NCBI GenBank assembly: GCA_016196565.1
Contig: JACPXK010000009.1
Span: 1-62,815, forward strand
Length of the DNA: 62,815 bases
Source: Candidatus Omnitrophota bacterium
GTDB taxonomy: Bacteria; Omnitrophota; Omnitrophia; Omnitrophales; Aquincolibacteriaceae
Direction: 5' to 3'
A program made the translations under genes and the position numbers. The notes below the pieces were generated by a model that was not told the origin of the DNA, ran no database searches, and saw nothing but the letters and a program-made list of their open reading frames with translations. Of the stretch, positions 10,445 through 45,032 are shown piece after piece (position 1 is the first letter of the stretch; the number at the start of each line of letters is the position of its first letter).

Positions 10445-10454
10445 TTTCACTTTG

Positions 10455-12502: not shown

Positions 12503-12505
12503 CCA

Positions 12506-13432: not shown

Positions 13433-13441
13433 GGAGTGATT

Positions 13442-16043: not shown

Positions 16044-16055
16044 CGACATGTAACT

Positions 16056-17327
16056 ATGTCCAAATTTCACGAATTCCGTTACGTTAAAGACGAGCTTTAC
16101 GCCGAAAATGTCCGCGTCCGCGATATTGTCGAAAAAACCGGCACACCCGTTTATATTTACAGCCACAAAACCCTTGTCGAACATATCAAAAAAATCCAAA
16201 CCGCTTTCCGGGCGGTAAAGCCTCTTATCTGCTATTCCATGAAGGCCAATTCCAATCTGGCGGTGCTGAGATCCATCGTCAGTCAGGGCGCGGGCCTTGA
16301 TATTGTCTCAGGCGGCGAGCTTTTTCGCGCCAAAAGGGTAGGCTGCCCTCCGGAAAAAATCGTTTATGCCGGAGTGGGAAAAACCGAAGAGGAAGTGGAA
16401 GAAGCCCTTCGCTACGGCATTTTACTTTTTAATGTGGAATCGCATCCGGAGCTCGAACTCATTCAAAAAGCGGCCAAACGCCTTAAAAAAACCGCCCGTG
16501 TTTCTCTCAGAATCAATCCGGGTGTGGATCCCCACACGCATGATCATATTGCTACCGGCAAAGCCGAAAGCAAATTCGGCATTGATTTGGAAGCTGCACG
16601 CGCTATTTTTTCCCGCCGTTCCCACTATCCCAATGTTTCGATTTGCGGGGTGCATGTTCATATCGGTTCGCAAATTACGATTGGCGAGCCTTTTGTCGAA
16701 GCCTTTCATAAAGTGCTCAGCTTTGTCGAAGAACTGGAAAAACAAGGCGTCAAAATCGAAACCCTCAATCTTGGCGGCGGGCTCGGGGTCATTTATAGCG
16801 ATGAAAATCCCCAAACCGCCGAGGATTTTGCCAAAAAAATCCTTCCGCTCTTTAAAAATAAAAAATATAAAATTGTTTTTGAGCCGGGCCGCTTTGTGGC
16901 CGCGAATGCGGGAATTCTCGCGGGCAAAGTCCTTTTCATCAAGCAAACCAAGGTAAAAAACTTTGCCATTTGCGATACCGGCATGGGGGATTTGATCCGC
17001 CCCACGCTTTACGGCGCTTATCATGAGGTGTGGCCCTTGAAGCGCAGCGAAAAGGCCGCCAAATGGATGTATGATGTGGTCGGCCCGATTTGCGAAAGCG
17101 GAGATTTTCTGGCCAAGGAACGTCATCTTCAAGAACTTCACGCCGGGGATTATTTGGCCTTCATGACCGCCGGGGCTTACGGGTTTGTCATGGCTTCCAA
17201 TTATAATTCCCGTCCCTTGTGCGCCGAGGTTTTGGTCAAAGGCCGCCAGTTTCAAATTGTCCGCAAACGCCAAAAATTGCAGGATTTGACGGCCGGGGAA
17301 AGCATCCCTTCTTTCATTTCCCGTTGA
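16056..17327 (+). CDS. lysA: Diaminopimelate decarboxylase
   Basis: LysA decarboxylates meso-diaminopimelate to lysine. The 423-residue protein is a fold-III PLP enzyme with the PLP lysine K63 in CYSMKANSNLAVL, the phosphate-binding LNLGGGLGV and EPGRFVAANAGILAG loops, GVHVHIGSQI, and the dimer-partner active-site cysteine in GPICESGDF. It lies 12 bases after argH in the same direction, so lysine output may be co-regulated with arginine. The other fold-III decarboxylase at 53175 is shorter and of the ornithine type. Confidence 0.95.
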   Translation: MSKFHEFRYVKDELYAENVRVRDIVEKTGTPVYIYSHKTLVEHIKKIQTAFRAVKPLICYSMKANSNLAVLRSIVSQGAGLDIVSGGELFRAKRVGCPPEKIVYAGVGKTEEEVEEALRYGILLFNVESHPELELIQKAAKRLKKTARVSLRINPGVDPHTHDHIATGKAESKFGIDLEAARAIFSRRSHYPNVSICGVHVHIGSQITIGEPFVEAFHKVLSFVEELEKQGVKIETLNLGGGLGVIYSDENPQTAEDFAKKILPLFKNKKYKIVFEPGRFVAANAGILAGKVLFIKQTKVKNFAICDTGMGDLIRPTLYGAYHEVWPLKRSEKAAKWMYDVVGPICESGDFLAKERHLQELHAGDYLAFMTAGAYGFVMASNYNSRPLCAEVLVKGRQFQIVRKRQKLQDLTAGESIPSFISR

Positions 17328-20905: not shown

Positions 20906-21088
20906 ATGCAAAACGAAATCCTAACCATTCATGAAGTAAGCGAATATCTGAGAATCCCGGTCTCTACGATTTACTCCCTGGCGCAAAAGAAAAAACTACG
21001 GGGGGCAAAGATAGGGAGACAGTGGCGCTTCCTTAGAGAAGAAATCGTGAATTATCTTCGCGGGCAGGAGGGGGCATATGCCTCATAA
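20906..21088 (+). CDS. Excisionase-type HTH DNA-binding protein (60 aa)
   Basis: The peptide is a complete MerR/excisionase-like winged HTH: LTIHEVSEYLRIPVSTIYSL, then KKKLRGAKIGRQWRF and REEIVNYLRGQ. Such stand-alone domains bind DNA as Xis proteins or as small regulators. The gene ends 11 bases inside the giant gene, whose strong AGGAGG ribosome site (21066-21071) lies in its coding sequence, so the two are translationally coupled. There is no integrase or attachment site nearby, so a regulatory role is more likely than excision. The 140-base gap upstream is A/T-rich with no convincing promoter. Confidence 0.85.
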   Translation: MQNEILTIHEVSEYLRIPVSTIYSLAQKKKLRGAKIGRQWRFLREEIVNYLRGQEGAYAS

Positions 21089-22970
21089 CCCGCCCGTCTT
21101 CCGGTATTCAGTTTTTTTACGCTTTACGGCCCTTGTCACCTTGCTCACTTTTTCTGTTCCGCAGGATTTAAGGGCCATGGTCGTGGCGTCTGGTCCCCAA
21201 CGGGAAACTCAGAGGGAAGTGCCGTTTCTTGTGAATACGGTATCCATTCCCTCCAGCATCGGAAAAATCGAGGAAATATACCAGGCTTCGCCGGAAAGCC
21301 CTCGCGTGGTCCTTATTCAGGATGCCCACTCCATTCCGGACGCCCAGAAGAATATTCAAAAATTAATTCATCATTTTCAAAAACAATATGGAATTGGCCT
21401 CGTGGCGCTTGAAGGGGCTTCGTCCAAGTTAGACCCGCAGATTTTAAGGAGTTTCCCGGACAAAGAAAAATTAGAAAAAACCTTGGATCAGTATTTCGAA
21501 AAGGGGGAACTTACCGGAAGTTCTGCCGCCGCCATTTTTTCTCCCGGAGATGGGAATAAAACGGTTTTCCAAGGCATTGAAGACTGGAAAATGTACGAAG
21601 AAGGTCTGGGCCTTTACCTTAAGGCGATGAAAAATCAGCCGGAGATCCTCAAAAGTCTTCACGCGCGCTCAAAGGACCTCGCCGCAAAAAAAGAAAAGAT
21701 TTATTCCAAAGAGCTTTTAGAAATCGACAAAATGCTTCAATCGTTCGAAGAAAATCATCAGAGTTTGGTCGAGGTCTTGAAACGGTTGTCCCGGATCAAA
21801 AGACCGCCCCAAAGCACCGAACTCGAATTGATTTTGGCGGAGGCCGAACGTGAGAACTTGGATTCTAAAGCTGAATTTTTGGAAGTCGGGACAATCGCGA
21901 AAAACATGCAAAGGCTTCTGCAAAAGCCATGGCTGCGAAGCCGTCTTGCTGAATTTAACGCCAAATTCCAAGAATTCAAAACCTCGCAGATATCTGCCTC
22001 GGCCTTCGCGTTTTATCTGAGAGAACTTTCTGAGTTGTCGGGCGTCCCTTTGCCGGTTTCAGTTCCCTTAGACCGCCTGATCAAAAACCAAAAACGCCTT
22101 GCCAATATCGAAGGCTCAAAACTCTTCCGTGATTTTGAAGATTACGCAGAGGAAATAATGGCTTTTCTTATCCGCAATGAAGAACAAGGGGGTATCAAGC
22201 AGGAAAGTAGAAAATTGGCCCTCCTGGGGAAGTTGGTCCGCCTTGAATTGACGCGGGCAGAATGGAATGAGGCTCAGCCGTTGGCCCAGAATCCGCAATG
22301 GACTGATCATCTGGCCTTTTATCAAAATGCCGAAAAACGCGACGATATCTTTTTAAATCAACTGTCATCCCTCATGCGGGAAAGAAAAACAGAATCCGCG
22401 ATTCTCATCGCCGGGGGTTTTCATGCAGAAGGATTAATGGCGAGACTTAAAGAGAACAATATTTCTTATCTTCTTCTTACGCCCCAAATCAATTCTATTC
22501 CCCAAGAAAATTATTATTTGAATCATATGAAAGGGGACGTCTCATGGAAAAGTTATTTCCGGGTTGAGAATGGGAGGGTCCATGTTTATCAGGCCTTTGT
22601 CCGTGCCGTGCGGGACCGGCTCATGGCCGGGCATTCGTCTCTGTTTTTGAAATCCTGGCGCGATCAAATCATTCGCGATCTTGCCCAGGAAGGAGGCCTC
22701 GAGCGGGCAGGGGATTACACGGGATTTCTTGATGAAATTTCTAAGGATGGGAATCAAAATCATTCCGTCAAAGACAAACTGCGTAAAATCAATGAATTCA
22801 TCAAAGGTCTGCGCCATCTCGAAATCCGCGGCGAACTTACCGGCCCGAATGTACTCAAACTCCTTCAGCCTTCTGCCGTACCGGCGGTTGCCATCGCCAT
22901 TCAATTGGCCTCAGGGAATACCATGCGTTGGCCATTGATTGAAGACCCCGTTGGTTCCGGCCCCGCCGCT
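21078..22970 (+). other. Giant protein module 1: signal segment and TraB/ChaN/EreA-like domain
   Basis: Residues 1-631. After the signal segment, VVLIQDAHSIPDAQKNIQKL (from about 76) and GLVALEGASSKLDP resemble the first strands of TraB/Tiki/ChaN/EreA-type hydrolases, in which an early His and Glu and a late GGxH are conserved; ILIAGGFHAEGLM near residue 444 supplies the late motif. A long coiled helical insert lies between. Hydrolase or peptidase activity is inferred. Confidence 0.45.
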
Positions 22971-25900
22971 CGTTCTGAAGTAAGAAAAATTGAGCCGAGT
23001 CCCGTGGTCATGAAATATCTGGCGCCGCCTCCGCAGGACATAAAAAAATCCAAAGCCAGAAAAAAACCGCGCTCCCGGACTGAAAAGGCGACCTTGCCCG
23101 CCAAACCTCAGCCGAGACAATGGCTTGTTTTCCCCGTGAATGGAAAGGATAAACTCAATCTTCATGCCAGGAATTTTCAAGAAATGACCAAACCCTTAAC
23201 GGATAAAGAAAAAATAGAATTTGAGAGGTATCTTGTAAAAGCTGTGGCGCCTGTTGTGCAAGATTTTGAGAAAAGCGGGTTATGGCATCCTTTTCGCGAG
23301 AAAGGGCATGATTTTAAAGCTCCCGGAGAAACCTGGACAGGAGAAGAAGGAGTTCTTACCCGCCTTCAATTTTATAATCCTATTATCTCGCGCAAATATT
23401 TTATCGACCGGTTGGTCCTGCCGCATATTTTGCGGCATTCTCCCCAAGCCGGCGCTTGGAGCGTTGCTTCCTGGGACGATCCCCGCCAAGGCCGGCCGAT
23501 TGCCAGAGAAAAAGAACGCATGATTCATTTGATGAGAGATACGGTGGAACATGTCATTTCCAAATATGGTTTGGGAGATATCCATATTCCGGAATTCATC
23601 CAGGAGGGTTACGCCAAAGGGCTTTTACCTTATTTTTGGCAGCGTTTGCTGCTGAGGGTGAATCGGCTGGTCAGCCCGGAAGTTATGGAAAATATTGTTT
23701 CCGCCATGTTTTTTTCGATCATTTCAATCGTTCTTGCCTTTCTCCGGAGTGTTTTCCACCTTGAAAAAACGGCGGAATTTTTAAGCGACTTTGTGGTTTT
23801 ACGGATTGGGAAAATTCAAGTCAATATCGCGGACGTCTTATTCGCCGCAATCATTGTCGGAGTGCTTTTTCGTCCTCAGTTCGAAAAATTTGAAAATTGG
23901 CTGAAAAATCTCGAAAGAGATTATCATGACCAGATTTTGGGCCGGGTTTTTACCCGGATTACGGCCGGCATTTATCATAAAAATTTAGAAAAGTTTGAAA
24001 ATGATTTTGCGCGTTTACGCGGCCGTTTTGAGCCTTCGGCCGAACCTTTATTCCGCGAAACACAGCATGTATTGATTGATATCGGCAATGAAAAACAACG
24101 GTACTTGCGTTTTGTCCAGTCCGGGAGTTTATTGATAGATTCCGGAATCAAGCTTGACGCCGAGACGGTGATCGTAGCCATGCTTGCGGACGCTTTGGGG
24201 CATAATCCCGAACGTTTTGAGGTCCATGTCCGGCGCTGGGAAAGCCGTCAAGAATGGGCGGATAAATTATGGGAAAAAACTTCTGTGGGACGTTCGCGGG
24301 GTCCGCGTCCCGAAAATCAATGGGACCGGCTGCTTGCTCTTCTTCCGCTTATCCGTATTCAGCAGCATGATTATTACCGGGACCACTACGCCTGGGAAAA
24401 TGCCCAGCCCAGCATTGACGCTTCGGAGCAAAGCGGGATAGAAACTTCAACCGGAGAACAGCAGGAGACACTTGCAGAAGAAATTTCAAAAATCAAAAAT
24501 GAGGAGACCGAGGCCTATCATCGATATCTTGCCGGCAAATTGATCCATCGCATTCAAAAAAGAAGATTAAGTATTCACAAAAGGCGTCAAACCATTCTGG
24601 CCTATTTCGGAGTTTCTTTGGCACGGCTCCGGTACTTGGAAGACAATTACACGGCCAACGAAGAGATTAATCCCGAATATGCCGAACGTCTTTTTGATAT
24701 GGGCGAGACTCATTGGCCGGGCATGCTGCAAAGAATTCATGATTATCAAAATTTGCGAAATAAATTCGGTCTATCGAAAGGCGAGATCGGGGTTCTTTTA
24801 GCTCAAATTCGGGAACATCTACAACGAGCGAAAGCGGCCCATGCAAGGGCCGAAGTGCGCATAAGCAAAGAAGCTTTTATTGAAAATCTCAAGCAGCGAA
24901 CGGCTCAAAAATTTGCGGCAGCTTCCAGCCTTAATCTTGATTATCCAAGCTGGACTGCGCACGCACTTTATCAAGTGTTAAACGGGACAATCCTTGAAAT
25001 TTATGAATTTTTGACAAAGGACCAAGAACCAGACGGGATTGCGCTTGCCCAATATGGCAGCCTTTCCCGGAACCTTTTTTATGGTGTTACTTCGGACATT
25101 GACCTTGTGATTATCGCGCGTGATGAACCCCAGTTGGAATTCGCGAATCATATCAAAAATGAACTAAGCGATATTCTGGCACAAGTCATCCCCCAAAATG
25201 GAAAAGAAGACCAATTCGTTAAGCTGGCCACAAGCCGGCCTCTAACTCCCATGGAAACTTTTACCTGGGCCCATTCGCGTTTTCTTGCCGGGGATTCAAA
25301 AGTATTTCAAACTTTCCAGCAAACCGTGCACGCGTCGTCAGGCGAAATGGCCTATCAAGCGGCTTTTCTTTTTAATTTTCTCGAACGTCCGATGCGTGAA
25401 CATAAAACGATGGAAGGCCAAGTGAATATCAAAAGCATGCCGGGCGGGTTGAAGGACCTCGGAATCTTGCATCAGTTTGCGGAATCCCACCGGGGGTATG
25501 CGGCGCTCCCTTTTCCCGGGGCCATGAAGGTTTTAGCCGATGAGGGAATTCTTCCTTTTGAAAATGTGAAGGACCTGAACCATTTGTTCGAAATCCTTTC
25601 ACGCCTAAGGCTTCAAGGCGGGGTTGAAGTAAAACCTGATGAGTTGCGCCCATATCAAGATTTGATCGATCGTGTGGCCGGGGTTGTGTCTTTTGCCGAA
25701 GATGAAATAGTAAAAAGAATGCTTGGATTGGATCAAATTCAAAATCCATCTCCTTTTTTGCAGGTTTATTTGACGGGGAAAATGACCGATCCTGACCGGC
25801 TTCAAGCCATCTTTTCTGAAAAACTTCGCGAGGCCGGCGGGAAGATCGAAGAAATGAACTGGCTCTATTTGGCCGCTTTTTCTTCCAATCCGGCTACGCC

Positions 25901-40900: not shown

Positions 40901-43900
40901 AAGCCGGATAGAAGGCGATCCATTTTTATTGCGTTCCAGCCCTTTGCGGGAAGCCCTTTCGGAGCCGAGATGGAACAGCGTCCGGCTGTATTACAGCGTC
41001 ATTTTCTGGAAAGATCCGGCCCGGACCCCTTGGGTAGTACGCAATGACGAAATAAAAAGTTTTACGGAGGCCATTGATCAAAACTTAGTGGCCAGGATTA
41101 TTGACACAGAATCCTTGGCCCCTGGCTCTCGTTCCGAAACGCGGCAGCCCAATCAAACAAAACGGGCAGTGGAAGAAAAAGGAAGGTACGCAGAGGTTTT
41201 TGAGCTGTTCAGGCGGACGTCTCGAAATGCGGGAAATATGGATGAGCTTGTCCAAGACCTGCAGGAGCCGCTGCAAAAGTTAATAAGAGCCGCGGCCTAT
41301 AATCCCGACTTTAGAATGCTGGCCAGAACTTTAGAAGTTCTGGTCCGTGACATCACAAAAGTTGGCGGTAAGCGAAAAGTCCATTTGGCTTTTCCTAGTC
41401 CCCAGGCGATTCAGTGGCTGGACAAGTTCAAAGAGCTTATCAGTGAATACGATTATGAGCCTTTTACCCCTCTCAAAGGAATTTATGTTGATCTTCAAAA
41501 TAGTTTGGGGGTCCGTGCGAGAGGCAAATCAAAAAATGGCCAGCGATCCGGCACAAAGGGGGAAAATAAAAATTCTAATAGAGTTTTAAAAAATAAAACA
41601 AATGCCGGGGACCCGTGGGAGGATTTATCCGAGCTTTATGCCGAGTTGGAAATTTTTTATGATTATAAAGCCGGTAAAGACGGAAAATACCGCAAATTCA
41701 CGAAAGAAAGATTTAAAAAGTTTAATCATCTGATGAAGCATTGGCCTTTGGCCGTTGAAATGATTGAAATCGAAGAAGGATTAAGTGTGGCTGATTTCGC
41801 GCAAGCTATTCTTGGCTGGGCTTTGCGTTATCAGAAAGAAGTATTGCGGCGGTATAGGAGAGGGGCCTATCCTGAAGTCGTGGTAAATCTTTTAAAACTG
41901 TTCCAGGAATATCATTCTGAGAATAAAGATTTCATCGCTGCCCTTGAACTGAAATCGGTCAAGAAGTCCGATCTCTCAGGCCGGTCAGAACTGAGAAGTG
42001 AAAATATTCAAGAAGCTCAAAGACAACGAGAGCTATTTCGAAATTATGTGATCAGCAGTTATGTCCGCATACGGAATCTTGAGGGGGGGGCCGAAGAGCC
42101 GCCATATCCGGAAGAATTCGAAGCGCTGCTTCATTTGATTGACAGCTACGGAGAAGAATTTTTGGAATGGAATCCGTTTTATGATCAAAATACAGACGAC
42201 CCCATGAATGCGCCTTCTCTTTCCTGGCTTTTAAGGGTGATGGAGAAACCGATGGATTTGCCGGATTCATTTTATCTCTTTCCATATTTGGCGGTGGATA
42301 GTTTAAAAAGACAAAGGCAAACATCTTCTTGGTTGAAAGCCGAGCCGATTATCCGGCAGCACATACGGTTTGGGATACTGGATGATTTAGCGGTTTATGC
42401 TGAAGCATGGATAAAAACCCACGAAAGCGGAGAGAAATTTTTTGAAATCGAACATAGGGCAAAACAATGGCTGCAGAGTTTTTATAAATACCTTTATGAA
42501 AAGCATCTTCCTTTGACCTCCCTTCAGCTAATTTACAAGACTTACTGGAAGGCCAGTGAAGAATTTAATAAAACCGATCTCATTAATATTTGGAACGATT
42601 TGTACAGCGAAGAAATCAAGGCGATTACGGGATGTAAAATTCTCATGCATCCTGATTCGAAAAAGGCAGATCATGTTGTGATTTCAGTCTCGCAAGATTC
42701 TAATTTGAATTCCGAATTTGGCGATTTTACTACCAAACCCATTCCTCTTTTTTCCCGCACAAAGAGCGAAGAAGATTTTGCCGATTTTCTTAATGATTTT
42801 ATCGAAGATGCGATTTTGGGAGCCAGCGAAGCCACCTGGCATGCCGAGTTTCAAAACTTAAAAGTAATTCATGATTTCCGTTTGGCCGTGTCATGGCTTT
42901 CCACCATTCTCCTGATTGCTTCACCGGCCTTGTTCTTTTTGCCCGTTGTGGGGCTCATTCAAAAAATAATTTTGGTGTTGGTCGAAATTGTCCTGGTCCT
43001 TATCACGGTCGGTTTTTGGCTTACTCGAAGCTGGGCGCGAAAAAGAGTGATCCTAAGAGTTCGAGAATTCATTCATGAAATCAATCGTAGAAATCCGGCC
43101 CGCTCCGAAACGCGGCAGAAAAGAAAGGACGTCAAAAATATTTCCGAAGTTTTGAAATATACCCAGAATTTTGTGGGCAAAGAAGGGAAAATTATTTTTG
43201 TCGAGCACCGTCCCGCAGTCCGCGAAAATGGAGTCGAGGCGCTCAAAAATTTGGGTTTTAACAATGTGCTCGGGATTCAACATATCAATCAATTGAGATC
43301 AGCCTCTGCGTCAAAAGCTAAAGACCCAATCAAGGTGGTAGTTGTTATCGGAAGCCATTATCAAAGGGATCCAAGAACCTATCATATTCTATTGGATTTG
43401 CCTTTTGATAGTTCGTCCTTAAATGCGGGAAAAATAGCTGAAATTTTTAAAGAACGCTTAGCCCGGTGGCATGCAGGCCAAGCGGACTATTACAATTTGG
43501 AGATAAAAATCCTTAAAGCTTTATTTGCCTCTGGGACCCTCGATAGCAAATCTCTTTACGAGACAGTGCTTAACTGGAGTGATAGAGTGCGGAGCCGGGC
43601 AAGAATTCTTGAACGGATTGGCCTGGTTGAAATTATAAAAGACCGTAAAGAAAAATCCCTTCGTATCGAAGGAGAGCGGCCTCATGATAAAAAGGGCACT
43701 TTTTATTCTAATCAATATGCCTTAACCGACGATGGCAGACAATTTGTTTCTGATTTTCAAGACGACCTTCCCGCCATGCAGCAAAAATTGCAGAATTTAC
43801 GCCGGGAAGCCGGAATAAAAAACCGTGTGACCAATAATCCCCCTTCGCTTACGCGAAGAAGGCGCATCGCGGTTTTAAAGTTGTTGGATGGTAGCAGCCC

Positions 43901-45032
43901 AAGCGAATTTATGATCGCAGAAATCGCGGCTCAAATGATCAAGGACGGGCATTTGAAAAAAGCGGCTAATGCTATTCCGATTCTTCGTCAGGATTTGATT
44001 GACATGAAAAAAGCTGACTTTATCGAAAGAAGACAGGAAGGGGGAGTATCTTTCTATCACATCCTGACGCGGGGACATCGAGTGGTTTATAAGATACGTG
44101 ATTTGGAGGAGATTGAAGCCGGCAAAGTATTTCAAAAAATGTTGACCGAAGACATTACAACCCGTAAAAATGCTCTAAAGGCTTTATCCAAATACTTCCA
44201 AGGTCGTGACGAGGGGCCCCGCCGTTCTGAATTGCGAAAGTTTCAGCTGGCTCCGGTTTTGAGGCCCAAGGCCGATACGTTATGGGCCGCGGGGATTATT
44301 GACGGCACTTTGTCGGGTGGCGTAGAAATTCCGTTGTCTGATAGGCAAAAGGCTTCCCAGATCGTAGCGGAAACGAACGTCAGAACATTCGCTGAAATTC
44401 TCAAAGTTATTGGGGCGCATCAAGCGCAACAGGAAGTATTTCGCCGGGAACAGGAAAGGCTGCTTGAAAAAGTCGAGGCGCTATTTCCTGATTTGAGATT
44501 TTCGTTCGGGGTTATTTTTCCGCCAGAAATGAATTCTGTGGAAATAAACGATTTGCGCCGGGTTTTTGAGCGGATTCGCGCCGAAGATGTGGCGGTCCAG
44601 AAACGTTTGAAATGGCTGCATGAACTTCGAATGGAGGGACTGCATTTGCGGCAAATTGATTTCGCCAATCCCGGGCCGGCGGAAGAGTCTATGGCAGTCG
44701 CTGTCATGGAAAATCAAGAAGGGTTAGCGCTGGAAAACCGTTTTATGCCTTTTACCTCTGAGGGTACCGGGCAAATAAACAATTATTTTGTCCGCCGTCA
44801 CACCCGTTTTCTGCATTTACTCAGCACCGGCCTTGCCTCAGCCCTTCTTAAACAATACCCTCAACTCCGGGGAAATCCGGAGGCACTGCTGGGTAAACTT
44901 CTGGAGATTTTTGGTTCCGAAGAATATCAGTTTATTCTTAATCTTAAAGGGCAGGGGGTTGATGTTAACCCGATGGCTGTCAGTTTTTGGGAATACGCTG
45001 CCGCCCGCGCCGAGGTCCGCAAAGCCGCTTAA
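21078..45032 (+). CDS. Giant modular protein with RSETR-type motifs (7,984 aa)
   Basis: This is one open frame of almost 24 kb with no stop, starting at an ATG six bases after AGGAGG. Residues about 12-33 form a hydrophobic signal or anchor (FLRFTALVTLLTFSV), so export to the envelope or outside is likely. The rest is divided into about nineteen domain-sized modules by the pentapeptide R-[S/A]-E-x-R. The protein ends nine residues after the start of such a motif (ARAEVRKAA). Recognisable folds include TraB/ChaN-like, GlnD-like, zincin, kinase, sigma-like, methyltransferase, JAMM-like, histidine-kinase ATPase and ADP-ribosyltransferase-like; hydrophobic segments lie in modules 2, 4, 5, 8 and 17. 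Giant proteins are known from Omnitrophota; their function is unknown. A polyprotein cut at the motifs, or a giant surface effector, are both possible. Single-gene status is secure; function is not. Confidence 0.9.
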   Translation: MPHNPPVFRYSVFLRFTALVTLLTFSVPQDLRAMVVASGPQRETQREVPFLVNTVSIPSSIGKIEEIYQASPESPRVVLIQDAHSIPDAQKNIQKLIHHFQKQYGIGLVALEGASSKLDPQILRSFPDKEKLEKTLDQYFEKGELTGSSAAAIFSPGDGNKTVFQGIEDWKMYEEGLGLYLKAMKNQPEILKSLHARSKDLAAKKEKIYSKELLEIDKMLQSFEENHQSLVEVLKRLSRIKRPPQSTELELILAEAERENLDSKAEFLEVGTIAKNMQRLLQKPWLRSRLAEFNAKFQEFKTSQISASAFAFYLRELSELSGVPLPVSVPLDRLIKNQKRLANIEGSKLFRDFEDYAEEIMAFLIRNEEQGGIKQESRKLALLGKLVRLELTRAEWNEAQPLAQNPQWTDHLAFYQNAEKRDDIFLNQLSSLMRERKTESAILIAGGFHAEGLMARLKENNISYLLLTPQINSIPQENYYLNHMKGDVSWKSYFRVENGRVHVYQAFVRAVRDRLMAGHSSLFLKSWRDQIIRDLAQEGGLERAGDYTGFLDEISKDGNQNHSVKDKLRKINEFIKGLRHLEIRGELTGPNVLKLLQPSAVPAVAIAIQLASGNTMRWPLIEDPVGSGPAARSEVRKIEPSPVVMKYLAPPPQDIKKSKARKKPRSRTEKATLPAKPQPRQWLVFPVNGKDKLNLHARNFQEMTKPLTDKEKIEFERYLVKAVAPVVQDFEKSGLWHPFREKGHDFKAPGETWTGEEGVLTRLQFYNPIISRKYFIDRLVLPHILRHSPQAGAWSVASWDDPRQGRPIAREKERMIHLMRDTVEHVISKYGLGDIHIPEFIQEGYAKGLLPYFWQRLLLRVNRLVSPEVMENIVSAMFFSIISIVLAFLRSVFHLEKTAEFLSDFVVLRIGKIQVNIADVLFAAIIVGVLFRPQFEKFENWLKNLERDYHDQILGRVFTRITAGIYHKNLEKFENDFARLRGRFEPSAEPLFRETQHVLIDIGNEKQRYLRFVQSGSLLIDSGIKLDAETVIVAMLADALGHNPERFEVHVRRWESRQEWADKLWEKTSVGRSRGPRPENQWDRLLALLPLIRIQQHDYYRDHYAWENAQPSIDASEQSGIETSTGEQQETLAEEISKIKNEETEAYHRYLAGKLIHRIQKRRLSIHKRRQTILAYFGVSLARLRYLEDNYTANEEINPEYAERLFDMGETHWPGMLQRIHDYQNLRNKFGLSKGEIGVLLAQIREHLQRAKAAHARAEVRISKEAFIENLKQRTAQKFAAASSLNLDYPSWTAHALYQVLNGTILEIYEFLTKDQEPDGIALAQYGSLSRNLFYGVTSDIDLVIIARDEPQLEFANHIKNELSDILAQVIPQNGKEDQFVKLATSRPLTPMETFTWAHSRFLAGDSKVFQTFQQTVHASSGEMAYQAAFLFNFLERPMREHKTMEGQVNIKSMPGGLKDLGILHQFAESHRGYAALPFPGAMKVLADEGILPFENVKDLNHLFEILSRLRLQGGVEVKPDELRPYQDLIDRVAGVVSFAEDEIVKRMLGLDQIQNPSPFLQVYLTGKMTDPDRLQAIFSEKLREAGGKIEEMNWLYLAAFSSNPATPASILEKMMPITKFRWSQKITTNMIAHPHIPTEALQTLSHETAINKEYRALALEKLQSRPAKSETRSLPQIKNDLKRILKEVQSGLNRQEALREVDQLLADWLSQESISGLPGLNYGWVYDSPSKKFLLAEGGQELKSIAGALQFHSFFDGADLVIFIDSLRFEPKVTGRALTHWLLKQFAEIIPKGHRVKIAGAILHTPTLIELAEDLSSKIDLTRQAKRRGALSPFAKLLLSSLDYYREARGRRLALTPASGSEEAKHNVSLNIGLAAFYMLKPQLLPNQAWVEKKSMGQISRLHGIPAKILVGSDNDNDSAFLMFELAFFSQNDHAVTSKEQMEQIMSEEADLLLSRILPSLNETRHEELKKLLIQSTAHRFNRTFSKALWTGLTSGVLFALAGLGRSFLIAGLGFTAGFILGIITQRRVEKSPHVHPIFLNINLADKDLNSEFNARRTLVHEWIHFLYHRNLLKTDAASSAVDRLRYAELTGDVHLAPKAWPWNHGFALWEGFQAMEGVLEKDDFKESPLSPVLAAVLEKAGRARISDYLFTMALSPERLLQYLIWSMVWILTGFRFKLENYLRSFRLGGMAISLYKNHPALKTSEGTVSPAWIFSREILAGKTAAEAYAAVRPFLAGTRSEIRIERLKSFLPFRGFIDSLKKSGRWEFYKKELLDFAFPLIAVSAVFIAGAAKETIFQEFPFTPTWGKSLIAISIAAFLIMFFQHLVKESKHFIQEKHFSSSIFRLLTYPLVAISLLLWEAKAPYSLFNHSGSSWLSFLPDTRVLAEMTLDFIQRIPVVGKSSLFSWPALDAVLKVFHLIISISILLPSLFAAFILPHLMWEGFLGLGSAVGSPKIRRWSEDWKEHMRSFLPSRSETRGNLISEELLGSKYPIRVVARTLYSLINEGREDEGAIAIPDATLPAHDEYFKRNLHGRIMDANLEFASAAGLPEAAELQALVKKGKVALLESADIRSKAVDSRDEIKDMLWHEQLHLALDDNPDISSTVIQRVMTTSLKLIARPRKILAEFYEEEHTLGEETLIILLTKLSGEDKERKAISKAFSELLSDNPEMFDRLMQIRKELEPSEELIEAAIQAANNISERKKTYYDEIRVFFRDNSKIRSETRGNLISEELLGSKYPIRVVSPTLCSLISEAEEGRLAVAIPDAASPAYRDLERNIQWAVANANLEFASAMGWPEAAELQAMVKKGKVTLLESADIRSKVNDSPDKIKSAIWHEQLHLALDDHPDIAAAVIQRVMSSSMELIVEARKILEAFYGDRAGEETLIVLLTEVFSADQEIHEKGILKKFRELLSDNPEMFDRLMQIRKEVEPSQQLIETVIQAANSVSEEKSTYRDQMKAFSRSENPEMGYREKFEEMGLSSQEIEELEKYTKEFLDNPEHRMFIRRNQKELLDSLADEDLLSYALLPLPAPHKEAANFRFWKKQVFFPFVEASRDYLNRMNPEILIKIFSRKIFIPEREFALWDFLTGVLPQSNRLTPEERQMLASLDSDDSLVEQGVTLTALKDFSSGRGLDPGEMVWRLTLSKDGRSIPIFLKGVGKGIKAEMQTQQTNIQAHETFFFEIAKLLGLNSIESYHYSEDRDQSMFGFVLMEDARAQNMKDIFIEEEKRPQLNADLISQKEARALIPQLARYAAVSDFLHGTDRKIYQLERSQFPANYMVDLERFKKGEPSVISIDHQFLFNATNDFVASDLERSADAEMGILIALDDFFESGEGRERLFEEYRRVYLDEWHEIRIHREAIEAKVIQTFGEDSHEHKIILSELAGDPEEHFDQQKAALLKLVEKPLRFYDSFGFRRWNLRSNIASAELLFSMMRGVSFIHKWGRYLFYLVGILVTLNLALQGWGLPAANLNFLLIPLGFLGAYLFSLSVYLALYHYDRADGKVAIEGGYRKDVKRYLQLRSEILGYWKNSLQDESPRTVKEYQFNKPRLTALREKFKYWLDQIARPYPALTSDLHDRVMDVAYERAMRTFEDLVLAAKKILQKERKNRVEIKRQLKHLVVGDDIELQKTIHNFLQDYQKFRERVPFAPIRSEARQEPKTVAVDGASIHDDELRQSPTDGQVIIKRVISPAEMAVRLEGMEVLMKELMAHDGVALSEFIRQAYPQLSHPGNFQDWEDRVQNAAIYFFLKHERIQRKYDPARDSPENYLSMVIRSRGIRFGRKKGKVPALESDVEIDQFSFQDSQISRDKDPAESAEISDSAQLAKGFLLPRLEEDERALFVARAEGKPLKEIAREANLPLDQVSRTLTAAKVKMQIMSEALDQKIPPDKMALHRLESLIRRMHEPHRAIATDLLGGMTTREIKERYQLDEAGFLKNIRNIHHTIYIIFGPETAKILIKELWREMTEERPSEKIVKATHHRKEKFMPVDQQFYEWLLEARSNLPSAGMVIVFDKIMQGKLPAEIAKEHKLAGHSFNKQYAYPIEKHLGEASEKRGLLRRTLMDTLKAVSANNRLASAAGADGLARSETRSSVNPAAKLAYYLGILESDADLTALLKAASRVQLLIDDISLQDRLPFLERLWNLYLQRPKLKTALIQSLVMFGFGNGKIKNEALRLLQNRAEGNDDLLIAALSGLIRGINEGWIQKLPDAFYSAMVPLISKDQHEIIGGIASNIFITAWEKKWLSAEQIRKMPGLVEKIRTLSKTHPGFFAAEIDKAFLKALGLPEVTASSFELQQANLYSDANLAAILKEINSPHTMTSQELLESLFENKSMVLLGHYSSYIASSLIKDIRELHQKGILTHFALPLEPQFESEFSRWKREGTITADTRLMLSAYLVGAVDPEKLEARKPGFAVQLDAAIQDFHEIISRLPDTLEIFLYGNSDIGGDDEKIAEQTINLAKRLENNAARILVFSHRIRAGKIDLVQPSGRDILLTLGASLNRYLSKEKAVRIAYVLEEDEDAWESAREHNLARLMALYPLRSFALMLKGSRLADRPFSWDYEQTTISELFDALIFRRENDNDGNRNFTRPPRVVEPLDSPDLSLAGARSEMRTAPLLETDARLRLELERIKEEPLSDLTDIAFFRVTKGFGPYTPEQAEILFDAVWQRFGPQELTFPPELKKILLEHCEHLNLSNFATGWIGVKGINALKEAGVLSREHERFLWKVFHRARSKSSNREDYLVSDENVQELMTHSPYPKMILDLGSGPKGMALAKLKDRYQDKVIAHGIDLEGSQKAHPDIFLVQGDITELPYADNSFDLIYESEVLHYFAEGGKLGKVLVEALRVLKPGGKFIFKSTDFFTRGKIVDALEAAGLPYGISQYAPYVITKGSAVARSETRNLDMDIAAMSDNTVIPKEAMIFSDPDTGYHIVDMNLWDFDPESDESREILEGLSEQLAEIYRTRFEKNSFGLRSYLVWEQMIGAKKNELLVLMNREGKIEGFLLADALRNPVLLDRIASRENGIKSKGTWLLHTFFKKMQRQGQLEIEWYSSSDATYGFYNRVLVRPEFSALIDDFEPLHYPDDEHFNIRLKPLRSETRAVSIPISKKQIEGILNARIPEEKVSRLTDFIHQSPAMLNALWDTPLASSPMGRGPLYQIQKEGVPVLIISLFSGFIVDFSTNVLGDKFDLDLLRGDEPISQEQFFKLKFISSKKTVADLFREKGLGKFVEEGLPLETDMDFFYDSKSGTIQGVSTIHEDPMAQIVIDTTETGDWKFSGFGAGIANIRSESIYQGAKWNGLIPLFGMHTHPDENFHPGYTDMEFMVREPEIPQMIVTPSGKARMWAVWDQKGLKSLINHRLWRSPVWEPEQVQKMAKQYLYWVPVRDERPGLAFDALRHHQFHDALRKMDPIDVKLSRIQKILSSSSVLDVLKREYQDLRTKIYRFYGKPTPENWHQLNQALSQKAEIIRQFETAAAQIETLLGQGAIEEDDETTLREGVALIKENLLSLFEILENHSRAIQDSVLQNSLRTHERLKIAARSFSHSQVGDITVFAFGLKWTTIKHILPQLKDDDLSAALDNLNAKIKNFYSGPTLKNLDEMDELLVQKAKISSRFEAVVAQIDALLQPASVNGDNEKEVRASIEVLRKNLIYLFETLENRVRFARAVPVQNPFDLRDVVYRSALTRDWRGGSEELLERVALHLPEEVIGIRGDELSLINGFNNIIRNGLAAVSSTAGDEGKIEVTLSSDQNQAVLTISDQGPGVLPELLAAGADGKKKLFELGASSKGKERGIGLAEAWHAVGDHGGTIEVNSELGKGTTFTIRLPLHAPRSETRNNPWPRDQIRITKDKSARTAWDKRLRWLDSQFRRYASFEDIRDKMREQFIDIFHRAGVFNKQFFSGLETIPPIFFNAEELKGLLQFMAAMNKEEKEILAILKRMEKKGERVYLDQGVHDARVRQFSFSPRIVSAYWVHENNLTLEEKVAMTMELFGNTPRRLDWLIGIAKLSKTKRRIVINRVKDLKKRYERAVQWHLRHTFPPYTTALALYHGSNKNIFDGRKWLVKDPVYMTFNSGLARSYVDEDFLWPGEKGAKEGQILQARIPLSAVIGFRKLHDRTNEIVVKEGIYPILENRVVPRSETRSVEDLPGPIQKIQQQLDQYLRDDKFDWSHQSVELKKFKKHEADYGGFILNPGTSDSQGYAVPPLYALLVRLAVLPENIVNSQASALIGFQLGADGRPDRNQPPIGWLLIYQHNGNTFMLARDKDGKLIQEAIHGSRRKTRKILTEQEVWIRFSEALLYPKSKEKLSNLALFLLLNHANSRREKEIVADGQTRSKGGFYNFGPLRFQIPEMHRILKGGTALSVFFDESRNANWVLIIPSDEIAAVRQKAERLADIPWIIFHRNLLLPPGQAELFDKMGQTDVLNSSNPEAEGSRPALSLMDSGKFRFFLTRLEKPWKALPLEQKKTFVVALGDRVGMAVRPETELVLIRRKGEVPSAEGGENNQIFVLHKDTPILHVSIQEITKKEDVLRNYPRETTLLEALSQNQENGFNLPPDWIEKIGEASLFSASLSRDDPGMVEIKIDGKQKPFLILKTFHDASNHGESAAHFAIPALAHLLSRIEGDPFLLRSSPLREALSEPRWNSVRLYYSVIFWKDPARTPWVVRNDEIKSFTEAIDQNLVARIIDTESLAPGSRSETRQPNQTKRAVEEKGRYAEVFELFRRTSRNAGNMDELVQDLQEPLQKLIRAAAYNPDFRMLARTLEVLVRDITKVGGKRKVHLAFPSPQAIQWLDKFKELISEYDYEPFTPLKGIYVDLQNSLGVRARGKSKNGQRSGTKGENKNSNRVLKNKTNAGDPWEDLSELYAELEIFYDYKAGKDGKYRKFTKERFKKFNHLMKHWPLAVEMIEIEEGLSVADFAQAILGWALRYQKEVLRRYRRGAYPEVVVNLLKLFQEYHSENKDFIAALELKSVKKSDLSGRSELRSENIQEAQRQRELFRNYVISSYVRIRNLEGGAEEPPYPEEFEALLHLIDSYGEEFLEWNPFYDQNTDDPMNAPSLSWLLRVMEKPMDLPDSFYLFPYLAVDSLKRQRQTSSWLKAEPIIRQHIRFGILDDLAVYAEAWIKTHESGEKFFEIEHRAKQWLQSFYKYLYEKHLPLTSLQLIYKTYWKASEEFNKTDLINIWNDLYSEEIKAITGCKILMHPDSKKADHVVISVSQDSNLNSEFGDFTTKPIPLFSRTKSEEDFADFLNDFIEDAILGASEATWHAEFQNLKVIHDFRLAVSWLSTILLIASPALFFLPVVGLIQKIILVLVEIVLVLITVGFWLTRSWARKRVILRVREFIHEINRRNPARSETRQKRKDVKNISEVLKYTQNFVGKEGKIIFVEHRPAVRENGVEALKNLGFNNVLGIQHINQLRSASASKAKDPIKVVVVIGSHYQRDPRTYHILLDLPFDSSSLNAGKIAEIFKERLARWHAGQADYYNLEIKILKALFASGTLDSKSLYETVLNWSDRVRSRARILERIGLVEIIKDRKEKSLRIEGERPHDKKGTFYSNQYALTDDGRQFVSDFQDDLPAMQQKLQNLRREAGIKNRVTNNPPSLTRRRRIAVLKLLDGSSPSEFMIAEIAAQMIKDGHLKKAANAIPILRQDLIDMKKADFIERRQEGGVSFYHILTRGHRVVYKIRDLEEIEAGKVFQKMLTEDITTRKNALKALSKYFQGRDEGPRRSELRKFQLAPVLRPKADTLWAAGIIDGTLSGGVEIPLSDRQKASQIVAETNVRTFAEILKVIGAHQAQQEVFRREQERLLEKVEALFPDLRFSFGVIFPPEMNSVEINDLRRVFERIRAEDVAVQKRLKWLHELRMEGLHLRQIDFANPGPAEESMAVAVMENQEGLALENRFMPFTSEGTGQINNYFVRRHTRFLHLLSTGLASALLKQYPQLRGNPEALLGKLLEIFGSEEYQFILNLKGQGVDVNPMAVSFWEYAAARAEVRKAA
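22971..24845 (+). other. Giant protein module 2: membrane-associated region
   Basis: Residues 632-1256. A basic Lys/Arg/Pro-rich linker (about 650-680) leads to a helical region with conserved-looking His and Trp, then two hydrophobic segments (about 873-893 and 915-932) and a charged helical tail. No family recognised. Confidence 0.4.
24846..26081 (+). other. Giant protein module 3: GlnD-like nucleotidyltransferase
   Basis: Residues 1257-1668. YGSLSRNLFYGVTSDIDLVI (about 1325-1344) carries the G-S...D-x-D nucleotidyltransferase signature, and NIKSMPGGLKDLGILHQF (about 1450) closely mirrors the K-x-G-x-GG-[LI]-[RK]-D-[IL] segment of [protein-PII] uridylyltransferase. The ACT domains of GlnD are absent. 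Nucleotide transfer to a protein or small target is a reasonable inference. Confidence 0.65.
26082..27797 (+). other. Giant protein module 4: possible GNAT-like part and HExxH zincin
   Basis: Residues 1669-2240. An alpha/beta segment (VIFIDSLRFEPKVTGRALTH, about 1760) resembles an acetyltransferase core. It is followed by a hydrophobic hairpin (about 1985-2024) and the zinc-peptidase motif HEWIH at 2062-2066 with a further His at 2070. Other zinc ligands are not certain. Confidence 0.5.
27798..28502 (+). other. Giant protein module 5: multi-pass membrane segment
   Basis: Residues 2241-2475. About four hydrophobic segments follow one another (for example FAFPLIAVSAVFIAGAA and LIAISIAAFLIMFFQHL). 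This would anchor the middle of the protein in a membrane if the chain is not cut first. It ends directly at the duplicated zincin modules. Confidence 0.55.
28503..29243 (+). other. Giant protein module 6: zincin, first copy of tandem duplication
   Basis: Residues 2476-2722 (247 aa, 741 bp). HEQLH at 2591-2595 is a zinc-peptidase motif, preceded by ALLESADIRSKA and followed by LALDDNPDI. The next module is a diverged copy of this one, and both start with the same RSETR-GNLISEELLG stretch. Confidence 0.6.
29244..29963 (+). other. Giant protein module 7: zincin, second copy
   Basis: Residues 2723-2962 (240 aa). It repeats module 6 along its full length with many substitutions; HEQLH is at 2837-2841. 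The first roughly 65 bp of the two copies are nearly identical in DNA, the rest has diverged, so the duplication is fairly recent or locally homogenised. It ends at the decayed motif RSENP. Confidence 0.7.
29964..32024 (+). other. Giant protein module 8: PI-kinase/HipA-like kinase and membrane hairpin
   Basis: Residues 2963-3649. IPIFLKGVGKGIKAEMQ suggests the ATP-lysine region; VSDFLHGTDRKIYQL (about 3258) and VISIDHQFLFN (about 3292) resemble the catalytic D-R-x(n)-N and metal-binding D-H segments of PI3/4-kinase, HipA and related folds. Two hydrophobic segments follow at about 3443-3495. Kinase activity is inferred from motif spacing only. Confidence 0.4.
32025..33323 (+). other. Giant protein module 9: sigma-factor-like helical domains
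   Basis: Residues 3650-4082. DWEDRVQNAAIYFFLKHERI with YDPARDSPENYLSMVIRSRG (about 3735-3780) looks like sigma region 2. LEEDERALFVARAEGKPLKE with IAREANLPLDQVSRTLTAAK (about 3829-3870) looks like a region 4 HTH. A further HTH-like stretch (TTREIKERYQLDEAGFLKNI) follows. A sigma-like domain within a putatively exported chain is unexpected. Confidence 0.5.
33324..34886 (+). other. Giant protein module 10: helical repeats and alpha/beta domain
   Basis: Residues 4083-4603. The first half looks like HEAT-type paired helices. The second half is alpha/beta, with SMVLLGHYSSYIASSLIKDI (about 4331) and a late RILVFSHRIRAGKIDL. This order recalls module 1 (TraB/ChaN/EreA group) but the match is weak. 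Confidence 0.3.
34887..35744 (+). other. Giant protein module 11: SAM-dependent methyltransferase
   Basis: Residues 4604-4889. The class I methyltransferase motifs are all present in order: MILDLGSGPKGMALAKL (motif I, about 4755), AHGIDLEGSQ (motif II), VQGDITELPYADNSFDLIY with ESEVLHYF (motif IV region), and ALRVLKPGGKFIFKS (post-motif IV). This is the clearest enzyme domain of the chain. The substrate is unknown. Confidence 0.85.
35745..36341 (+). other. Giant protein module 12: GNAT-like acetyltransferase
   Basis: Residues 4890-5088, the shortest module. NELLVLMNREGKIEGFLLAD, then KGTWLLHTFFKKMQRQGQ and the closing ATYGFYNRVLVRPEF follow the order of a GNAT fold (beta bulge, acetyl-CoA loop, FY-x(3)-GF-like end), but the Q/R-x-x-G-x-[GA] loop is degenerate. 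Confidence 0.4.
36342..38543 (+). other. Giant protein module 13: JAMM-like peptidase plus histidine-kinase ATPase
   Basis: Residues 5089-5822. FGMHTHPDENFHPGYTDMEF (H5300 and H5302) resembles the H-x-H-P-x(7)-S-x(2)-D metal site of JAMM/MPN peptidases, with slightly altered spacing. After two related helical stretches (about 5405-5490 and 5560-5640) comes a full HATPase: N box FNNIIRNGLAAV (about 5713), G1 DQGPGV, G2 KERGIGLAEAW, and GGTIEVNSELGKGTTFTIRL. No clear phospho-acceptor histidine box is seen. Confidence 0.6.
38544..39458 (+). other. Giant protein module 14: ADP-ribosyltransferase-like domain
   Basis: Residues 5823-6127. After a helical half, ALYHGSNKN (about 6037), VYMTFNSGLARSYV, GQILQARIPLSAVIG and TNEIVVKEG appear in the order of the R/H-STS-ExE type folds of mono-ADP-ribosyltransferases. 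The catalytic Glu would lie in NEIVVKEG. Inference from motif order. Confidence 0.45.
39459..41129 (+). other. Giant protein module 15: unrecognised
   Basis: Residues 6128-6684. Mixed alpha/beta sequence with no family recognised. A segment near residue 6195-6255 (YALLVRLAVLPENIV, ALIGFQLGADG, WLLIYQHNGNTFMLARD) suggests a beta-sheet domain, and a second sheet-rich part follows near 6480-6530. Confidence 0.4.
41130..41981 (+). other. Giant protein module 16: helical, unrecognised
   Basis: Residues 6685-6968. Largely charged helices with a low-complexity Lys/Asn-rich linker in the middle (GKSKNGQRSGTKGENKNSN). No family recognised. Confidence 0.4.
41982..43100 (+). other. Giant protein module 17: helical with membrane segment
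   Basis: Residues 6969-7341. Opens with RSELR followed directly by SEN. Helix-rich sequence ends with a hydrophobic hairpin (about 7271-7315, LSTILLIASPALFFLPVVGL and IILVLVEIVLVLITVGFWL) and a basic tail just before the next motif. Confidence 0.45.
43101..44222 (+). other. Giant protein module 18: winged-helix-like domains
   Basis: Residues 7342-7715. Two stretches look like winged helices of transcription-factor type: LKALFASGTLDSKSLYETVL with ARILERIGLVEIIKDRKEKS, and AVLKLLDGSSPSEFMIAEIA with RQDLIDMKKADFIERR. An alpha/beta stretch precedes them. DNA binding is inferred. Confidence 0.4.
44223..45032 (+). other. Giant protein module 19: C-terminal module ending in ARAEVRKAA
   Basis: Residues 7716-7984. 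Helix-rich domain with VRRHTRFLHLLSTGLASALL near the end; no family recognised. The protein stops four residues after a last copy of the motif (RAEVR-KAA), as if the motif were also a C-terminal tag. Confidence 0.45.

What the first reader, a model, noticed from the sequence alone, without database searches (positions are those of the whole stretch)
21078..45032. Giant 7,984-residue protein partitioned by an R-[S/A]-E-x-R pentapeptide: a candidate polyprotein
Eighteen full motifs (most often RSETR) and one decayed copy fall between recognisable domains, never inside the ones I could identify, at spacings of 199 to 734 residues. With rough residue frequencies, less than one would be expected by chance in a chain this long. 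Codons differ at wobble positions, so selection acts on the peptide. The N-terminus has a signal segment. I infer a processing, anchoring or module-shuffling signal, for example a site for an arginine-specific protease that releases about nineteen proteins from one chain. The chain itself carries zincin- and JAMM-like peptidase motifs that could do this.
Basis: partly seen in the sequence, partly recalled or inferred. Interest (0 to 1): 0.95.

Follow-up and report, generated by a model that had tools for sequence, protein, structure and literature searches.

The report
Exported bacterial polyproteins with genome-specific separators
Bacteria of the phylum Omnitrophota encode giant, probably exported protein chains in which cysteine-poor enzyme modules are joined by a short peptide, R-[S/A]-E-x-R, whose variable letter tends to be the same across the giants of one genome and to differ between genomes, and at which a still unidentified protease likely cuts the chain into separate proteins.

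Summary
The motif is not private to it. A search with its N-terminal domain gave 131 giants (itself included); of 120 listed, 79 carry at least 5 sites. In a related genome read almost completely, 11 giants hold 228 sites (4 expected) while 1,783 other ORFs sit near chance. Sites avoid the N-domain (1 found in 74 giants, 90 expected) and located domains. Asp at E3 and Lys at R5 stay at background. The fourth residue is more alike within genomes (0.41) than between (0.17; p=0.0002), most clearly in three leucine-using genomes; one genome spells RSELR at 22 of 22 sites in four giants with 22 different DNA sequences. Giants are cysteine-poor (0.075% against 1.1%), yet UDP-glucose-dehydrogenase-like modules keep the catalytic cysteine and lose the others. 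Their C-termini share L..E..A...[IV]..[AS]A. I infer exported polyproteins cut, or at least read, at the separators by a trans-acting factor. Published work knows giant Omnitrophota ORFs; in my searches nobody describes the separator.

The parts
21078..45032 (+). Giant ORF, 7,984 aa, 3 Cys
21078..21185 (+). N-terminal basic/hydrophobic signal-like segment (aa 1-36), predicted Sec signal
   Evidence: sequence; 117 of 120 giants pass a lenient hydrophobic-run test near the start; no signal-peptide program was available
21225..22868 (+). N-domain (aa 50-597), fold resembling EreC/ChaN/HopBA1; conserved H84, E112, E168, R421, H449
   Evidence: it is the query that collected the giants
22971..22985 (+). 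separator 1 RSEVR (aa 632), after a stretch of very low model confidence (aa 598-631)
24846..24860 (+). separator RAEVR (aa 1257)
24999..25613 (+). GlnD/nucleotidyltransferase-like stretch
   Evidence: PF08335 E 5.8e-4 and PF18765 E 0.008, both below cut-off
26082..26096 (+). decayed separator KSETR (aa 1669)
27798..27812 (+). separator RSEIR (aa 2241)
28503..28517 (+). separator RSETR (aa 2476), start of first copy of a duplicated HExxH module
29244..29258 (+). separator RSETR (aa 2723), start of second copy of the duplicated module
32025..32039 (+). separator RSEAR (aa 3650)
32556..32696 (+). sigma-70 region 4-like segment
   Evidence: PF08281 E 2.5e-4, below cut-off
33324..33338 (+). separator RSETR (aa 4083)
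34887..34901 (+). separator RSEMR (aa 4604)
35346..35627 (+). SAM methyltransferase domain
   Evidence: PF08241 E 1e-13
35745..35759 (+). separator RSETR (aa 4890)
   Evidence: lies in the lowest-confidence part of a poor model
36342..36356 (+). separator RSETR (aa 5089)
36975..37016 (+). JAMM-like HTHP...D
   Evidence: label recalled
38187..38537 (+). HATPase_c (histidine-kinase-type ATPase) domain
   Evidence: PF02518 E 1.1e-15; ends 3 aa before the next separator
38544..38558 (+). separator RSETR (aa 5823)
39459..39473 (+). separator RSETR (aa 6128)
41130..41144 (+). separator RSETR (aa 6685)
41982..41996 (+). separator RSELR (aa 6969)
43101..43115 (+). separator RSETR (aa 7342)
44223..44237 (+). 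separator RSELR (aa 7716)
45006..45020 (+). C-terminal separator RAEVR (aa 7977), then KAA-COOH
44985..45029 (+). C-terminal tail ending in AA, of the shared type L..E..A...[IV]..[AS]A (aa 7970-7984)

Best explanation
The 7,984-residue protein is a likely exported polyprotein of an Omnitrophota-type bacterium, in which a conserved N-terminal domain is followed by a string of modules joined by R-[S/A]-E-x-R separators, and a genome-encoded trans-acting protease probably cuts those separators after export to release the modules. Shown: dozens of giants share the separator; in the one genome read almost completely it is enriched in giants only; its flanks are linker-like in composition and it avoids the located domains; Asp at E3 and Lys at R5 are at background; its fourth residue is biased by genome; and the chains are cysteine-poor but can keep a catalytic cysteine. 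Inferred: Sec export (signal-like N-terminus, cysteine depletion), recognition by one trans-acting factor per genome (shared dialect over otherwise unrelated cargo), and cutting rather than mere binding. The cutter is unidentified. Two candidates are a short, exported-looking trypsin-like protease and the N-domain itself, whose fold resembles EreC and ChaN and which keeps a nearly invariant His/Glu/Glu/Arg/His set.
For: 17 sites vs 0.48 expected. 79 of 120 listed giants have >=5 sites: 809 RSE.R (12.7 expected), 178 RAE.R (17.6), against RSD.R 7 (8.3) and RSE.K 9 (11.1). Relative G005: 11 giants 228 vs 4.0; 1,783 other ORFs 22 vs 17.4. N-domain of 74 giants: 1 site, 90.1 expected at chain density. 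18 near-full-length matches of ordinary proteins: 0 sites inside, 9.4 expected. HSP ends within 10 aa of a site 28.0% vs 5.4% for random positions. Linker-like flanks. Dialect, over the 45 of 76 loci that have >=3 sites: within-genome similarity 0.414 vs 0.166, p=0.0002; flanking positions give -0.0 to 0.027. 22 of 22 RSELR in four giants, 22 distinct 15-mers, the four sharing only N-domain similarity. Cys 0.075% vs 1.135%; UGDH-like modules keep the catalytic Cys 3 of 3 and 0 of 18 others. C-terminal [AS]A in 101 of 120.
Against: No cleavage product or proteomic datum was available. No protease was identified: C11 0 of 24, C25 2 of 24 (both without N-domain matches), C14 1 of 24 genomes. Exported-looking proteins in G005 do not avoid the motif: 5 vs 2.24 expected in 339. 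Only 32 of 73 spanned junctions keep the motif in the aligned homologue (control 2), so separators are gained and lost. Without the three leucine genomes the dialect signal is weak (0.218 vs 0.167, p=0.043), and one of six flanking positions also reaches p=0.003. The window chain has 10 hydrophobic 19-residue windows, unexpected for soluble released enzymes. Part of the cargo looks altered: P0105's starch-synthase-like domain lacks the Lys of KTGGL, and three second UGDH-like alignments lack the catalytic Cys. The AF2 model across a window junction was too poor to use. 41 of the 120 giants have fewer than 5 sites.
Confidence: 0.52

Rival explanations
1. The chain stays whole. R[SA]E.R is a docking motif bound by a partner protein that anchors or bundles the giant on the cell surface, like beads on a string.
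For: Strict recognition and the genome dialect fit a binding partner as well as a protease. Published readings treat Omnitrophota giants as surface or adhesin proteins (PMC10066038, passages read). Exported-looking proteins do not avoid the motif. Hydrophobic segments occur in the chain.
Against: Separators avoid domains and cluster at the ends of shared blocks, at irregular intervals. Cargo includes enzyme-like modules, some with retained catalytic residues, odd for an adhesin.
Confidence: 0.27
2. The motif acts during export or folding, for example as a pause or chaperone-loading site between domains that lets each module fold before the next emerges.
For: It sits in linker-like sequence of very long, exported-looking chains. 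Strict sequence. No cutter found.
Against: A general export factor would be expected to be shared across genomes, yet the fourth residue is biased by genome, and relatives repeat unrelated words such as [AG]xSLG or GARLA.
Confidence: 0.13
3. The motif is a by-product of module duplication or of a DNA-level recombination sequence.
For: One duplicated module in the window carries its RSETR along (aa 2476 and 2723).
Against: 22 of 22 RSELR sites in one genome use 22 different DNA spellings, and those four giants show no similarity beyond the N-domain region. Flanking residues carry little or no genome signal.
Confidence: 0.03

Closest known systems
Giant ORFs of Omnitrophota (PMC10066038; V. archaeovorus 39,678-aa protein)
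   Same: Same phylum as most named homologues, ORFs over 20 kb, few annotated domains, presumed surface or predation role (passages read)
   Different: The passages read describe no shared separator, N-domain, C-terminal signal or cysteine depletion; 'polyprotein' occurs 0 times in the main text. Whether the V. archaeovorus protein itself carries the motif was not tested
Viral polyproteins (recalled)
   Same: One ORF, several independent folded proteins, short conserved junction peptides
   Different: Cellular, many chains per genome (11 with >=3 separators in G005), exported-looking, junction word biased by genome; no protease shown
MARTX-type multi-effector proteins with autoprocessing (recalled; PMC3153235 seen only in a search listing with the start of its abstract)
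   Same: Several cargo domains in one exported chain, released by cleavage
   Different: Those use a dedicated internal cysteine protease domain; here cysteine is nearly absent
EreC, ChaN and HopBA1 (6xcq, 2g5g, 5t09)
   Different: No shared Pfam family, Foldseek E 0.065 at best; activity unknown
Cellulosome scaffolds and dockerin-bearing giants (recalled; dockerins in one Omnitrophota giant ORF, PMC10066038, passage read)
   Same: Multi-enzyme assemblies outside the cell
   Different: Here the enzymes are parts of one chain; no dockerin or cohesin among the Pfam matches of the window protein

Membership tests
Polyprotein (cleaved multi-protein precursor) | one ORF with several independent folded modules | tested here: met
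   Methyltransferase and HATPase domains in the window; near-full-length matches of ordinary proteins within modules of homologues
Polyprotein (cleaved multi-protein precursor) | conserved junction peptide between modules, not inside them | tested here: met
Polyprotein (cleaved multi-protein precursor) | demonstrated cleavage at the junctions | not testable with these tools
   no proteomics available
Polyprotein (cleaved multi-protein precursor) | identified protease with matching specificity | tested here: inconclusive
   C11, C25, C14 rare or absent; a short S1 protease correlates with strong N-domain matches (21/15/8/101 of 145 genomes) without phylogenetic correction
Omnitrophota giant ORFs | ORF over 20 kb in an Omnitrophota genome | tested here: inconclusive
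   ORF of 23,955 bp; 15 of the 20 listed homologues whose name gives an organism say Omnitrophica/Omnitrophota, 75 of 76 genome loci too; the window's own genome is not held
EreC/ChaN/HopBA1-type fold (N-domain) | fold | tested here: inconclusive
EreC/ChaN/HopBA1-type fold (N-domain) | conserved active-site-type His/Glu residues | tested here: inconclusive
   H84 111, E112 111, E168 106 (+5 Asp), R421 112, H449 112 of 112 aligned; equivalence to Ere catalytic residues was not aligned here
EreC/ChaN/HopBA1-type fold (N-domain) | enzymatic activity | not testable with these tools
   none
PEP-CTERM / LPXTG-type sorting | C-terminal motif + hydrophobic helix + basic tail (definition recalled) | tested here: not met
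   C-terminal logo of 107 giants is L..E..A...[IV]..[AS]A ending at the last residue, with no basic tail
MARTX-type autoprocessing toxins | internal cysteine protease domain | not tested
   not searched; the window chain has 3 Cys in all

The most novel reading that the evidence does not exclude
A phylum-wide bacterial polyprotein system: each genome has one exported processing protease, possibly the shared EreC/ChaN-like N-domain itself, whose specificity has co-evolved with a genome-wide separator dialect. It cuts about a dozen giant chains into hundreds of cysteine-poor proteins, around a tenth of the genome in G005, which form a second protein complement working outside the cytoplasm or inside a partner or prey cell.
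Probability: 0.28. Interest if true: 0.97.

Novelty: categorically new. Interest (0 to 1): 0.9.

Why it matters
Giant Omnitrophota ORFs have been a puzzle with 'few annotated domains' (PMC10066038, passages read). A shared separator, N-domain and C-terminal signal make them readable: each chain can be split in silico into modules and annotated, and cleavage becomes a single yes/no proteomic test. If cut, bacteria would have polyproteins on a scale otherwise known (recalled) from viruses, with junction dialects pointing to an undiscovered family of specific proteases. Loss of cysteine except at a catalytic site, seen in the modules examined, would be a clean signature of enzymes redesigned for export.

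Tried and rejected
Caspase-fold families as the cutter: C11 0 of 24, C25 2 of 24, C14 1 of 24 genomes; dropped. S41 tail protease as reader of the C-terminal [AS]A: present in 5 of 12 giant-rich but 12 of 12 N-domain-negative genomes; dropped. S8 subtilase: 5 of 12 vs 5 of 12. Trypsin-like PF13365: 11 of 12 vs 8 of 12, followed up with one short G005 protease: strong matches in 21 of 36 genomes with a strong N-domain match and in 8 of 109 others, a split I made by hand at cut-offs I chose (S1 E<1e-25, N-domain E<1e-80); relatedness not corrected; kept only as a candidate. The tmRNA tag of G005 ends LAA but does not otherwise resemble the giants' tail. A gene family next to giants: several ORF families recur upstream in 5 of 21 genomes, probably one syntenic site; not checked further. 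No excess of doubled separators (58 vs 55.7 expected within 30 aa). The C-terminal 269 aa of the window protein found no relative among the 120, although 34 others form one cluster by their last 450 aa. 'The first site follows the N-domain' was demoted: 44 of 81 giants have it within -3 to 57 aa of the profile's end, but the profile was built from a query that I had cut at the first separator, so that end is not independent; the count of sites inside the domain does not depend on it. Residue-by-residue conservation over junctions was only mildly informative. Strict active-site patterns for TIM, PGK and GlgP found nothing in 120 giants, but also nothing in G005's ordinary proteins, so they say nothing. 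The AF2 model of window aa 4604-5093 has mean pLDDT 45.7 and is not interpretable. No PDB sequence relative for the first half of the chain. Rfam scan of the window: no match; tandem repeats: one short array outside the giant. That the separator is not in print rests on searches (open-licence PMC only; listings, with passages of three papers read); preprints are not held (so not the West-Roberts giant-genes preprint), and Kizina 2022 was not held.

Full report
OBSERVATION. The window has one 7,984-residue ORF at 21078-45032 (+) without internal stops. It contains 17 R[SA]E.R sites; composition predicts 0.48 and 1,000 shuffles gave a mean of 0.498 and a maximum of 3. Spacings are 199-984 aa. 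The nine RSETR copies have nine DNA spellings. In 30 other window ORFs (11,830 aa) the motif does not occur and Cys is 0.83%, against 0.04% in the giant.

HOMOLOGUES. Searching the first 640 residues among proteins of 4.4-14 thousand residues gave 131 giants including the window's own, of which 120 were listed. Of the 20 whose listed name gives an organism, 15 say Omnitrophica/Omnitrophota, 2 Verrucomicrobiae, 2 Elusimicrobiota and 1 'bacterium F11'. A scan of genome contigs gave 76 loci, 75 titled Omnitrophota/Omnitrophica and 1 Elusimicrobia. Of the 120 giants, 79 have at least five R[SA]E.R sites (467,808 aa): 809 RSE.R against 12.7 expected and 178 RAE.R against 17.6. One-letter neighbours are at or near background: RSD.R 7 (8.3), RSE.K 9 (11.1); mildly raised are KSE.R 25 (11.1), RPE.R 37 (8.9) and RSE.H 11 (3.0). 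So the motif is read specifically, not as a charged linker. Flanks of 981 sites are S/A/P-rich before and S/T/A- then E-rich after. Of the 41 other giants several repeat another word: [AG]xSLG in eight, GARLA-like in three, [RKH]xELR in four that I inspected (one of these four, P0015, is also among the 79), with no copy inside the N-domain, its last 40 aa excluded, in any of the 15.

POSITION. In 74 giants with five or more sites the N-domain, its last 20 aa excluded, holds 1 site where chain density predicts 90.1. The first site often follows it closely (44 of 81 within -3 to 57 aa), but the profile came from a query cut at the window's first separator, so this distance is not independent. 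Blocks shared between giants beyond aa 700 end within 10 aa of an R[SAP]E.R site in 28.0% of cases against 5.4% for random positions (370 alignments, not independent of each other), and hold 72 sites where 197 are expected; the 72 were not inspected one by one and may include alignments that run over several modules. Twenty-two Pfam-located stretches in five giants, several of them below Pfam's cut-off, hold none. In 18 places where an ordinary G005 protein aligns over at least 80% of its length with a giant, there are 0 sites inside (9.4 expected), and in P0053, P0054, P0055, P0058, P0062 and P0119 an alignment end lies within about 4-26 aa of a separator. Where an alignment spans a site beyond aa 700, the homologue has one within 10 columns in 32 of 73 cases, against 2 for a shifted window.

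GENOME CONTROL. The window's genome is not held. A 2.5 Mb relative, G005, was fetched almost completely (155,159 masked bases, one contig in part, one small contig missing) and read with a simple ORF caller. Eleven giant ORFs with three or more sites, some cut by contig ends (85,444 aa, about a tenth of the genome), hold 228 sites where 4.0 are expected; 1,783 other closed ORFs (619,169 aa) hold 22 where 17.4 are expected, and the only two with two sites lie at contig starts and look like tails of giants. Cys is 0.075% in giants, 1.135% in the rest and 0.776% in 230 crudely predicted exported proteins. All 9 closed giants end in [AS]A, against 2 of 230 exported-looking and 22 of 1,444 ORFs without a signal. 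Against expectation, exported-looking proteins do not avoid the motif: 5 vs 2.24 in 339. N-domain matches occur in 85 of 145 genomes drawn from the phylum; in the ten genomes searched first, listed open frames reach 35,113 aa.

DIALECT. In a first test I grouped 56 loci from 14 genomes by hand, of which 39 had three or more sites in their longest frame (within 0.406, between 0.160; p=0.0002); three further multi-locus genomes had been left out. Repeated over all 76 loci with the frame that holds the N-domain, 45 loci have three or more sites (31 dropped): the fourth residue is more alike within a genome (0.414) than between (0.166), p=0.0002 in 5,000 permutations; without the most uniform genome 0.308 vs 0.155, p=0.0002; without the three leucine genomes 0.218 vs 0.167, p=0.043. 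In the first set the same test at six flanking positions gives differences of -0.0 to 0.027, one of them (+6) at p=0.003. In the genome of isolate C24_metabat.bin.98, all 22 sites in the held parts of four giants are RSELR, written in 22 different DNA sequences, and the four show similarity to each other only in the N-domain region; a fifth locus there is a 225-aa fragment without sites. This is best explained by selection on the peptide by a factor common to the giants of a cell. The signal is clearest in leucine-using genomes; shared ancestry within a genome is not formally excluded.

CYSTEINE AND CATALYSIS. In 18 paired stretches giants hold 10 Cys and the ordinary homologues 58. In three modules of the UDP-glucose-dehydrogenase type (P0054, P0055, P0119; family from the Pfam accessions, name recalled) the Cys of GGSCFPKD, the catalytic residue (recalled), is kept in 3 of 3, while 0 of 18 other Cys positions are kept; two of the modules each carry one new Cys elsewhere, and three weaker second alignments (23-28% identity) lack the catalytic Cys. 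P0081 has 3 Cys in 6,791 aa, one of them in CTANYHRS, the P-loop of a low-molecular-weight phosphatase (accession, motif recalled); P0084, a close relative with 5 Cys, has the same. HRD-type kinase motifs stand in 5 giants and an NDK motif in 1; the PEP-utiliser His is kept in P0083, P0097 and P0109. Against this, P0105's starch-synthase-like domain has lost the Lys of KTGGL. So at least part of the cargo appears to be maintained as enzyme, under a pressure against free cysteine.

MECHANISM. Committed reading: Sec export (inferred), then cutting at the separators by a trans-acting protease (inferred, about 0.52), releasing modules. Candidates for the cutter are the N-domain and a short exported-looking trypsin-like protease (two in G005), whose strong matches fall in genomes with a strong N-domain match in 21 of 29 cases and are absent in 101 of 109 genomes without one, while 15 of 36 genomes with a strong N-domain lack it (relatedness not corrected). 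C11, C25, C14, S41 and S8 do not fit. The main rival is a docking motif on an uncut surface chain.

NOVELTY. Giant Omnitrophota ORFs are published, with functions called poorly understood (PMC10066038, passages read). PMC11573180 (passages read) raises generic cleavage of huge proteins as a possibility. PMC12057145 (passages read) cites readings as surface weapons or cellulosome-like structures. Papers combining Omnitroph- and polyprotein: one listing hit, not read. No passage or abstract seen describes the separator. I therefore call the system categorically new, on the understanding that the polyprotein step itself is still a prediction.

Noticed in passing
window 28503-29984: A module of about 247 aa with HEQLH is duplicated in tandem inside the giant, each copy starting with RSETRGNLISEELLGSKYPIRVV.
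   Followed up: partly
C-termini of the giants, window 44985-45029: A shared C-terminal signature L..E..A...[IV]..[AS]A-COOH that looks like an independent sorting or recognition signal; no reader known.
   Followed up: partly
P0100, P0114, P0117; P0069, P0072, P0081, P0084, P0090, P0091, P0093, P0097: Relatives with the same N-domain repeat different words (GARLA; [AG]xSLG) instead of R[SA]E.R.
   Followed up: partly
P0071: A giant with many repeat-domain Pfam hits has RTSP 15 times at long spacing and fairly normal cysteine content (0.7%): possibly another separator or a repeat-domain feature.
   Followed up: no
G004:C37:184263-185126: N-domain match inside an open frame of 35,113 aa.
   Followed up: no
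L031, L039, L047, L076 upstream flanks: Several ORF families recur upstream of a giant in 5 of 21 genomes: probably one syntenic giant locus, useful for following module turnover.
   Followed up: no
window 8205-17327: Arginine biosynthesis genes in a row (argC, argJ, argB, argD, ornithine carbamoyltransferase, argininosuccinate synthase and lyase) followed by a PLP decarboxylase.
   Followed up: no
G001:C41:92574-93377: One N-domain match broken by a TAA next to another N-domain match: a decaying or misassembled copy.
   Followed up: no
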